Assembly (NCBI GenBank): GCA_022655215.1
Contig: JALCUE010000002.1
Location: 488,386-552,385 of the forward strand
Origin: Atopobiaceae bacterium
GTDB lineage: Bacteria; Actinomycetota; Coriobacteriia; Coriobacteriales; Atopobiaceae
Direction of reading: 5' to 3'
DNA length: 64,000 bases
Part shown: positions 4,501 to 6,012 of the stretch, piece by piece
How the letters are laid out: each line of letters starts with the position of its first letter
How positions within the stretch are numbered: the first letter of the stretch is position 1
Position numbers and translations under genes: made by a program
Notes under the pieces: generated by a model
Seen by the model: the letters and a program-made list of their open reading frames with translations, nothing else
What the model was told of the DNA's origin: nothing
The model's database searches: none

Positions 4501-6012
4501 CTCTCCACGAGGCGTCCGGTCAACATCGGCACGGCCGTCGGCATCATCGCCGCGCAGTCCATCGGCGAGCCTGGCACGCAGCTCACGATGCGTACGATTC
4601 ACTCCGGCGGCGTCGCAGGCGCCGACGACATCACGCAGGGCCTGCCTACCGTCAGCCGTATGTTCGACGTCGTCGGCAACGTCAACGAGAAGCTCCTCGG
4701 TCGCGAGGCCGACCTGGCCTCCCTCACGGGCATCCTGTCGATCACGCCTGAGCAGACCCAGTACCTGATCCGCATCCTCGACCCGGATGACACGAGCCGC
4801 ATCCTCTCCGAGAAGCGCGTCCCCGCGTCCGTCCGCTTCATGCCCGGCATCGAGGACGGCTGCGAGGTCCGTGCCGGTGACCAGATCACAAAGGGCTTCG
4901 TCAACTTCAGGAACCTCCGCAAGCTCACCGACATCGAGTCGACGATGCACACGTTCGTCGAGTCGGTCAAGGACGTCTACACGTCCCAGGGCGTCGAGCT
5001 CAACGACAAGCACATCGAGGTCATCGCCCGCCAGATGCTCCGCCGCGTCCAGGTCACCAACCCTGGCGACTCGAAGTACCTGCTCGGTCAGTATGTCGAC
5101 CGCTACGAGTTCGCCGATGCCGTCAACGAGATCACGCTGGCCGGTGGCACGCCTCCCGAGGCCGAGCCCACCATCCTCGGTACCCTCAAGGTCGCCAGCT
5201 CCATCGACTCCTGGCTCTCGTCCGCGAGCTTCATCCGCACCGCCGGCGTCCTCACCGAGGCCGCCATCAAGGGCGAGGTGGACAACCTCCTCGACCTCAA
5301 GTCCAACGTCATCGTCGGCAAGCAGATCCCCGCAGGCACCGGTCTCGATGCCTACCACGACGTCTCCCTCACCTACCATGGCGAGAAGATCGACGGTCCC
5401 ACGAGCCCGCTCGCCAAGAGCCTGCCCGAGTGGGCCCCCGATGAGCTCAAGGACATCGAGGAGCAGCTTCCGCAGCAGCTCGACTGGGTCGGCGACGACT
5501 ACGGCTTCGGCGGCGTCTACTCCAAGAACGGCCGCACGCTCTCCAGCGAGGACGCCAAGCTCTACCTGTTCGACGACCTGGGCGTCTCGCAGCGTTGGAC
5601 CAACAAGTTCGCCGAGGTCAGCATCGAGACCGTCGGTGACCTCATCGGCAAGACCGAGGACGACCTCCTCCGCATCGACGGTATCGGCGCCAAGGCCATC
5701 GAGGAGCTCCGTGACGGCCTCGAGGCCCGCGGCCTGCTCTACATCCTCGAGCCCGACGACGACGTCGCCGACGACGAGGACCTCTCGCAGCTGCTCAACA
5801 TGGTGTTCAGCCCGGATGCGGACAGCGACATCATGCTCGGCTCCGCGGCTCCCTCGCATCATCACTTCGATGACGAGCTGATCGGCGGCAATGACGACGA
5901 GCCCAAGAAGGGCTCTCCCGTCATCAACGAGGACCTCGATTCCCTCGACGACCTTCTCAGCCAGGTCGTCAAGCAGGAGGACTCGCAGCCCGGCGAGGGC
6001 GACGAGGACTAG
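1567..6012 (+). CDS. rpoC: RNA polymerase beta' subunit with an extra alpha-CTD-like C-terminal domain
   Basis: Catalytic subunit of RNA polymerase, 1481 residues, GTG start. The N-terminal zinc site (CSCGKYKG...CERCG) is followed by an actinobacterial charged coiled-coil insertion (about residues 145-235), the catalytic NADFDGDQM with Asp535, Asp537 and Asp539, the second zinc cluster ([14 protein letters not shown]) and the trigger loop. The protein then continues past the normal end. Residues 1337-1390 (bases 5575-5736) align without gaps to the alpha C-terminal domain encoded by rpoA in this same window, 23 of 54 residues identical. They keep the residues equivalent to E. coli alpha Arg265, Asn268, Gly296, Lys298 and Glu302. 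An acidic tail of about 90 residues follows. A rho-independent terminator closes the operon. The beta' identity is certain; the alpha-CTD-like role is inference. Confidence 0.98.

What the first reader, a model, noticed from the sequence alone, without database searches (positions are those of the whole stretch)
5575..5736. RpoC carries an alpha-CTD-like domain with conserved DNA-contact residues
Residues 1337-1390 of beta' align with no gaps to residues 256-309 of alpha (rpoA, bases 29765-29926): 23 of 54 identical, counted by eye. Using E. coli alpha numbering, the beta' copy keeps Asp259, Arg265, Asn268, Gly296, Lys298 and Glu302; Ser299 is Ala. Those residues contact UP-element DNA or sigma in known alpha-CTDs. 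A third, covalently tethered alpha-CTD on the polymerase could read upstream DNA or recruit activators. I know of no description of this in beta', and the conserved contact residues argue against a generic helix-hairpin-helix.
Basis: partly seen in the sequence, partly recalled or inferred. Interest (0 to 1): 0.88.

Follow-up and report, generated by a model that had tools for sequence, protein, structure and literature searches.

The report
Alpha-CTD-like domain on RNA polymerase beta'
In the gut-bacterium class Coriobacteriia the largest RNA polymerase subunit usually ends in a flexible arm carrying an extra copy of the DNA-reading domain known from the alpha subunit, so the polymerase probably has three such domains instead of two; what the third one grips is not yet known.

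Summary
RpoC 1337-1390 aligns without gaps to alpha 256-309, 23 of 54 identical. Pfam RNA_pol_A_CTD matches RpoC above its cut-off (31.1 against 23.8 bits); HHH_5 does not. AlphaFold gives the alpha-CTD fold (1lb2: Z 9.4, rmsd 1.8 A over 66 residues). RpoC carries it in 87 of 119 genomes of the class. Three families end in a pair of cysteine modules instead, and two other lineages of the phylum have such a domain too. Arg265 is invariant in 72 of 72 class copies, and its face is strongly conserved.

The contact-residue claim is half right: Asn268 holds in the window's order but in 7 of 31 copies elsewhere in the class; Asn294 and Glu261 are always Gly, Ser299 nearly always Ala, and the domain is more acidic than alpha's. 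DNA reading is plausible, not shown.

Ten narrow full-text searches found no paper on the fusion, but NCBI model PRK14906 covers the protein; I recall its CDD title as a beta'/alpha domain fusion, so the fusion itself has probably been noticed.

The parts
1567..6012 (+). rpoC, RNA polymerase beta' subunit, 1481 aa
5344..5574 (+). RpoC residues 1260-1336: 77 residues between a conserved core motif (PAGTG) and the domain; starts with the end of the core, then a tether. Residues 1300-1322 have pLDDT under 50
5569..5742 (+). alpha-CTD-like (HhH)2 domain, RpoC residues 1335-1392
   Evidence: PF03118 31.1 bits over cut-off 23.8; AF2 block pLDDT 83-90; Foldseek and VIA matches to alpha-CTDs
5593..5595 (+). 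codon of Arg1343 = E. coli alpha Arg265; Arg in 72 of 72 class copies
5743..6009 (+). acidic C-terminal tail, RpoC residues 1393-1481; within the class seen only in the window's order (families f1-f3). Predicted helices at residues 1403-1414 and 1457-1472 lie over two motifs, (L/F)x(M/A)(V/L)FSPD and L(D/E/H/Q)(D/E/A)LL, each in 38 of 38 tails (34 distinct)
29000..29941 (+). rpoA, alpha subunit, 313 aa; the genome's only other PF03118 match
29765..29926 (+). alpha-CTD region aligned with the RpoC domain; keeps the standard contact residues (Arg265, Asn268, Asn294, Lys298, Ser299)

Best explanation
RpoC of this organism, a member of Coriobacteriia (class inferred from named relatives), ends in a diverged homologue of the RNA polymerase alpha C-terminal domain, held on a tether of roughly 70 residues. 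With two alpha subunits the polymerase would carry three such domains. I think the domain is a mobile docking arm that uses the same Arg265-centred face as alpha-CTD (here Arg265, Trp266, Lys269, Lys298, Glu302 around the glycine hairpin) to grip nucleic acid weakly, most likely the upstream promoter DNA, with different and probably looser sequence preference than alpha, and without alpha's contact through residue 261 to sigma region 4 (Glu261 is Gly). Shown: homology, predicted fold, distribution in this phylum, conservation of that face. Inferred: nucleic acid as the partner, upstream DNA as the place, the effect on initiation.
For: Homology: PF03118 over cut-off; phmmer of the domain against PDB, 45 of 45 matches are alpha; family profile, best hit Thermus alpha-CTD at 59.7 bits, best non-alpha 27.6 bits among the 60 rows shown of 152. 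Fold: AF2 of two distant members, 1lb2_E Z 9.4 and 9.2. Conserved face: mean entropy 0.42 bits at the eight 265-determinant positions against 1.76 at other exposed positions, 1 of 20,000 random position sets as low; 6 of 20,000 with glycine columns left out; the 287 and 273 faces are not conserved (determinant and buried positions recalled). Added positive and aromatic residues on that face: Lys269 in 68 of 72, Trp266 in 69 of 72. Distribution: 87 of 119 class genomes. At the same place three families carry a tandem cysteine module instead, as if a small docking module were needed there.
Against: Asn268 is kept in only 7 of 31 copies outside the order, and three more read have Thr; Asn294 is Gly in 72 of 72 and Ser299 Ala in 71 of 72. 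Within the 265 set, 268 and 298 are themselves not well conserved (1.84 and 1.20 bits). Net charge averages -7.0 in the order's copies (25 rows) against -2.1 in 31 alphas. Thermus alpha-CTD, the closest solved relative, also keeps Arg265, and its polymerase is not stimulated by an UP element (PMC5511352, passages). Copies in family f42 have Tyr at 265 in 11 of 11, so that lineage cannot use Arg265. The 265 face of alpha also serves protein partners (recalled), so its conservation does not prove nucleic acid binding.
Confidence: 0.45

Rival explanations
1. Protein docking: the domain is a tethered bait for a transcription factor (as alpha-CTD is for Spx, NusA AR2, activators), and the conserved 265 face is the partner's binding site. 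It would recruit or hold a lineage-specific factor near the beta' C-terminus.
For: Loss of Asn294, Ser299 and, outside the order, Asn268, together with acidity, fits protein better than DNA; f42 lacks Arg265 yet keeps clear alpha-CTD homology (PF03118 45.3 bits for one member; residues); the acidic tail of the order holds two strongly conserved helical motifs (38 of 38 tails, 34 distinct). Solved alpha-CTD complexes with Spx and NusA AR2 exist (PMC4496699, passages).
Against: The conserved residues include Arg and Lys and lie on alpha's DNA face; the usual activator face (287 determinant) is not conserved. No partner is known.
Confidence: 0.32
2. Nascent RNA or ribosome contact: the arm acts after initiation, binding the emerging transcript or a coupled ribosome or NusA, since the beta' C-terminus leaves the enzyme near omega and not far from the RNA exit (recalled from structures, not checked).
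For: Long tether, 77 to 146 residues in the four rows where it could be measured; replacement by small zinc-type modules in other families.
Against: No evidence for RNA binding was found, and it was not tested; the position of the tether relative to the exit channel was not tested either.
Confidence: 0.1
3. Structural or inert appendage: an old fusion kept for folding, omega binding or assembly, with no gripping function.
For: Sequence outside the 265 face varies widely and some members (f11, f12, f13) are diverged.
Against: Invariant Arg265 and Glu302 and near-invariant Trp266 and Lys269 in a domain whose other exposed positions average about 1.8 bits.
Confidence: 0.08
4. Convergence: an unrelated generic helix-hairpin-helix domain that only looks like alpha-CTD.
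For: The fold is shared with other HhH domains: Rad51-family entries reach Z 7.2 (1 of 50 rows) and up to 8.1 (5 of 50 rows); the hairpin reads GIG as in generic HhH.
Against: Sequence: 45 of 45 phmmer matches are alpha; HHH_5 stays below its cut-off while PF03118 exceeds it; profile gap of over 30 bits between alpha and the best non-alpha chain shown.
Confidence: 0.05

Closest known systems
RNA polymerase alpha C-terminal domain (Pfam PF03118; E. coli 1LB2, Thermus 1DOQ)
   Same: Same fold and clear sequence homology; Arg265, Gly296, mostly Lys298, Glu302 and an acidic residue at 259
   Different: Carried on beta' behind a long tether; Asn294, Ser299 and Glu261 replaced; Trp266 and Lys269 added; more acidic; no alpha N-terminal domain
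NCBIfam NF011498 / PRK14906, beta' subunit model of this group
   Same: Covers the window's RpoC almost end to end (residues 1-1475, 2697 bits), domain included
   Different: The copy used here calls it only 'DNA-directed RNA polymerase subunit beta''. I recall, from no call, that the CDD title is a beta'/alpha domain fusion protein (provisional); I know of no functional work behind it
Lineage-specific beta' insertions (Actinobacteria beta'i1; BEAN and HABAS domains)
   Same: Lineage-specific additions to the large subunits
   Different: Those are described as internal insertions; a word search of PMC11515920 finds no mention of Coriobacteria, helix-hairpin-helix, C-terminus or C-terminal extension
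Tandem cysteine module on RpoC of sister families (DUF5763, PF19067)
   Same: Sits at the same place, after an acidic linker, on RpoC of the same class
   Different: Cysteine and histidine pattern instead of HhH; replaces the alpha-CTD-like domain. The one tested scores equally for DUF5763 and for the TRM13-type zinc finger (37.4 bits each)

Membership tests
Alpha-CTD domain family (Pfam PF03118), as a homologous domain | Profile score above the curated cut-off | tested here: met
   31.1 bits against 23.8; 36.6 bits in the genome search
Alpha-CTD domain family (Pfam PF03118), as a homologous domain | Alpha-CTD fold | tested here: met
   AF2 model matches 1lb2, 3k4g, 1z3e, 1doq; predicted, not solved
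Alpha-CTD as UP-element reader | Arg265, Gly296, Lys298, Glu302 | tested here: met
   All four in the window; in the class 72, 72, 63 and 72 of 72
Alpha-CTD as UP-element reader | Asn268 | tested here: inconclusive
   Asn in 41 of 41 copies of the window's order, 7 of 31 elsewhere in the class
Alpha-CTD as UP-element reader | Asn294 and Ser299 | tested here: not met
   Gly294 in 72 of 72; Ala299 in 71 of 72
Alpha-CTD as UP-element reader | Asp259 and Glu261 for sigma region 4 | tested here: not met
   Acidic 259 kept in 72 of 72; 261 is Gly in 72 of 72
Alpha-CTD as UP-element reader | Binds AT-rich DNA upstream of -35 | not testable with these tools
   Needs binding assay or footprint
Alpha subunit | Sits behind an alpha N-terminal domain | tested here: not met
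   Sits at the end of a complete beta' subunit
Generic HHH_5 (PF14520) | Profile score above the curated cut-off | tested here: not met
   15.0 bits against 27; 20.1 and 21.3 for two other members
NCBIfam NF011498 (PRK14906) beta' of this group | Score above the curated cut-off over nearly the whole length | tested here: met
   2697.1 bits against 1437, residues 1-1475

The most novel reading that the evidence does not exclude
The beta' C-terminus of these actinobacteria is an evolvable docking port. A third alpha-CTD on a long tether reads upstream DNA at promoters; in sister families a paired zinc-type module took the same job, and in two other lineages an alpha-CTD was attached to beta' independently. 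Promoters of a whole class of gut bacteria would then carry a third recognition site that current models miss.
Probability: 0.25. Interest if true: 0.85.

Novelty: new variant of a known kind. Interest (0 to 1): 0.62.

Why it matters
RNA polymerase is taken to have two alpha-CTDs. If most of a class of common gut bacteria carries a third on beta', its promoter architecture and activator contacts cannot be read off from E. coli or Mycobacterium. The swap for a cysteine module in sister families, and the same kind of fusion in two other lineages, give natural replicates for asking what a mobile arm on beta' is for.

Tried and rejected
Generic HhH domain: rejected on sequence, though Rad51-type folds come close in structure.

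A hit in family f46 first looked like RpoC by length (1437 aa frame). Reading it showed a large protein with protein-kinase-like sequence that resembles PglW (recalled label), not RpoC, so it was dropped.

A short motif, LIGG after acidic residues, seemed shared by the RpoC tail and the RpoB tail of the window. It was found in only 7 of 67 RpoB tails, so it is not a conserved motif.

A motif in the tether (FADL-like, and FDP/FEP) shared by domain-bearing and cysteine-bearing RpoCs looked striking by eye. Counted, it is in 15 of 29 and 12 of 12 for the first, 24 of 29 and 7 of 12 for the second, so it is only a tendency.

A first version of the face test also counted position 266, which I had already seen to be conserved; it gave 0 of 20,000. 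I use the version without it.

Other phyla could not be surveyed: the genome search takes only genome handles as centre, and I held none outside the window's phylum. The distribution claims hold for this phylum only.

The tree of the 69-column domain does not resolve whether the three RpoC groups share one origin. The tree of the RpoC core (quick method, SH-aLRT only, midpoint root) needs 4 changes of the label and starred branches force 3, which one early gain with losses could also give.

Papers: ten searches found no paper on the fusion. Eight gave zero papers, one search gave one unrelated paper (PMC7203096, listing only) and one search gave 15, of which 12 were listed and three opened for passages (one section read whole). 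Terms were narrow and most subscription papers are not held.

Full report
Observation. rpoC (1567-6012, 1481 aa) and rpoA (29000-29941, 313 aa, start inferred) are intact frames. Residues 1337-1390 of RpoC align with 256-309 of alpha with 23 of 54 identities; 20,000 shuffles reach at most 12. The genome search gave exactly two PF03118 matches, alpha and RpoC.

Homology. Pfam places the domain in RNA_pol_A_CTD above the curated cut-off, and HHH_5 below its own. Against PDB sequences, all 45 matches of the window's domain at E up to 0.01 are alpha. A profile of 46 family members matches Thermus alpha-CTD best (59.7 bits); 50 of the 60 rows shown (of 152 matches) are alpha, and the best non-alpha row has 27.6 bits. 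Eight NCBIfam alpha models also match the same residues of RpoC, with E from 1.4e-7 to 0.015, all below their whole-protein cut-offs, as expected for one domain.

Fold. AlphaFold2 on RpoC 1300-1481 with 35 sequences gives a confident domain at about 1326-1391 (block pLDDT 83-90) and a mostly disordered remainder, with two helices in the acidic tail; whole-model mean pLDDT is 65.4 and pTM 0.39. The 50 Foldseek rows shown (of 176) are entries of RNA polymerase or its alpha-CTD, judged by title. The E-values are modest: best 2.2e-3, none at 0.001 or below, in a partly disordered model with a 60-residue domain. VIA-align gives 1lb2_E Z 9.4, rmsd 1.8 A over 66 residues; 49 of 50 rows are RNA polymerase entries, the other is a human BCDX2 complex at Z 7.2. 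A distant member (L102, identical to the copy of family f10) gives the same fold, 1lb2_E Z 9.2; there 45 of 50 rows are RNA polymerase entries and 5 are Rad51-family, up to Z 8.1. So fold alone is not decisive, but sequence is.

Distribution. In the window's family, 57 of 61 genomes have the RpoC match, some on contig-cut fragments; in the other four only alpha was found, three of them incomplete genomes (57-84% complete) and one 96% complete. In a draw of 119 genomes from the class, 85 have the match on RpoC directly and two more (family f12) were read by hand, 87 of 119 in all. Three fragments among the 85 that I had not read before (G149, G078, G092) were checked and are RpoC with Arg265. 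Of the remaining 32, 30 belong to families f5, f16 and f17; in one f14 genome and one f6 genome (59% complete) RpoC was not found. The scan of named genomes confirmed 328 places and kept 80, whose titles are Eggerthellaceae, Atopobiaceae, Olsenella, Adlercreutzia, other Coriobacteriia, or unclassified bacteria and actinobacteria; none names another phylum. The closest named tail in the alignment is Olsenella profusa, 87% identical to the window's, so the window is taken as an Atopobiaceae-like member of Coriobacteriia; the genome itself is unnamed.

A swap. In 12 RpoC tails of f5, f16 and f17 that I read, the domain is absent and a pair of cysteine-histidine modules stands in its place; a thirteenth, G157, is the same. 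One of them, tested, matches DUF5763 (37.4 bits, E 1.8e-9, two stretches) and, just as well, the TRM13-type zinc finger (37.4 bits, E 1.9e-9). DUF5763 at E up to 0.001 was found on RpoC-sized or RpoC-fragment frames in 21 genomes (15 of 23 f5, 6 of 6 f16); many of these matches are under Pfam's own cut-off, which only 11 of the 119 genomes exceed. Four more genomes (three f5, one f17) were read directly, so 25 of 30; five f5 genomes were not settled. DUF5763 in f9 and f15 lies in small proteins of 184-191 aa, and some f5 genomes have such small proteins too. No genome was seen with both kinds of module on RpoC. On the RpoC core tree the cysteine group is one clade (SH-aLRT 83) beside domain-bearing f11.

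Outside the class. Of 270 other genomes of the phylum, 7 carry the domain on RpoC by the first profile: three of f42 and four of f31. An eighth in that draw, G344 of f31, came up only with a wider profile, so that search can miss diverged copies. The list was cut, so genomes with one match were taken to have alpha only; of 32 genomes outside the class with two or more matches I looked at 31 (G311 was not looked at). Tails of 30 RpoCs across the phylum, read directly, show the domain only in f31 and f42. Targeted draws gave 11 of 11 f42 genomes and no RpoC-sized frame in 50 others of that class, and 6 of 6 genomes of two f31 genera and none in 25 others of that class. The profile used there contains members of f31 and f42, so their scores are partly by construction. 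f31 copies keep Arg265 and Asn268 (5 of 5 counted; one residue is missing before the hairpin, so their later positions are out of register); f42 copies have Tyr265 and Ser268 (11 of 11) but Lys298 and Ser299. Separate attachment in three lineages is the simplest reading, but one old gain with many losses is not excluded.

Which residues are kept. I counted 72 of the 87 class copies (41 of 53 in the order, 31 of 34 elsewhere; many in the order are near-copies): Arg265 72, Gly296 72, Glu302 72, acidic 259 72, Trp266 69, Lys269 68, Lys298 63, Asn268 48 (41 of 41 in the order, 7 of 31 elsewhere), while Gly261 72, Gly294 72 and Ala299 71 replace alpha's residues. Thirty alphas are uniform at Arg265, Asn268, Cys269 and Ser299. 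On 32 RpoC rows the eight positions of alpha's 265 determinant are far more conserved than other exposed positions (0.42 against 1.76 bits; 1 of 20,000 random sets as low; 6 of 20,000 without glycine columns), though 268 and 298 are not; the 287 and 273 faces are no better than random sets. Alpha itself, as a control, gives 0.26 against 1.20 bits (4 of 20,000). Determinants and buried positions were assigned by recall of the alpha-CTD literature. So the face matters, but it is a changed face.

Mechanism. I commit to weak nucleic acid binding by this face, most likely upstream DNA, at 0.45. For: conserved Arg and Lys on alpha's DNA face. Against: three positions that matter in alpha are replaced; acidity is greater (mean -7.0 in 25 rows of the order, -3.3 in 31 others, alpha -2.1 in 31 rows); and Thermus, whose alpha-CTD keeps Arg265 (alignment), has a polymerase that was not stimulated by an UP element, which the paper sets beside its unconserved DNA-binding residues (PMC5511352, passages; section 7 read). 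Protein docking is the main rival at 0.32.

Novelty. The domain kind is known; its place on beta' is not discussed in any paper my ten searches turned up, but the NCBI model PRK14906 covers the protein and I recall that its CDD title names a beta'/alpha domain fusion. The conserved-face analysis, the distribution, the swap with a cysteine module and the separate lineages come from the calls above, and I know of no description of them.

Noticed in passing
window 6110-9298 (+): Next to rpoC lies a 1062-aa frame with many ricin-B-type lectin repeats (14 stretches of PF14200) and a C39-like peptidase domain near its end, probably a secreted carbohydrate-binding protein.
   Followed up: partly
window 5743-6009 (+): The acidic tail after the domain is, within the class, seen only in the window's order, yet two helical motifs in it are present in 38 of 38 tails examined, 34 of them distinct; they look like binding motifs for an unknown partner.
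   Followed up: partly
L077-L082, L084-L089, L256 (RpoC C-termini of families f5, f16, f17): RpoC ends in a tandem Cys-His module (DUF5763 or TRM13-type zinc finger by profile in the one tested) instead of the alpha-CTD-like domain.
   Followed up: yes
L091-L093, L183-L190 (family f42): An alpha-CTD-like domain on RpoC with Tyr in place of Arg265 but a more alpha-like hairpin half (GQKSLEE), followed by an acidic tail.
   Followed up: partly
L101 (family f46): A protein-kinase-like protein resembling PglW (recalled label) has a region that matches the domain profile weakly (E 1.5e-4).
   Followed up: no
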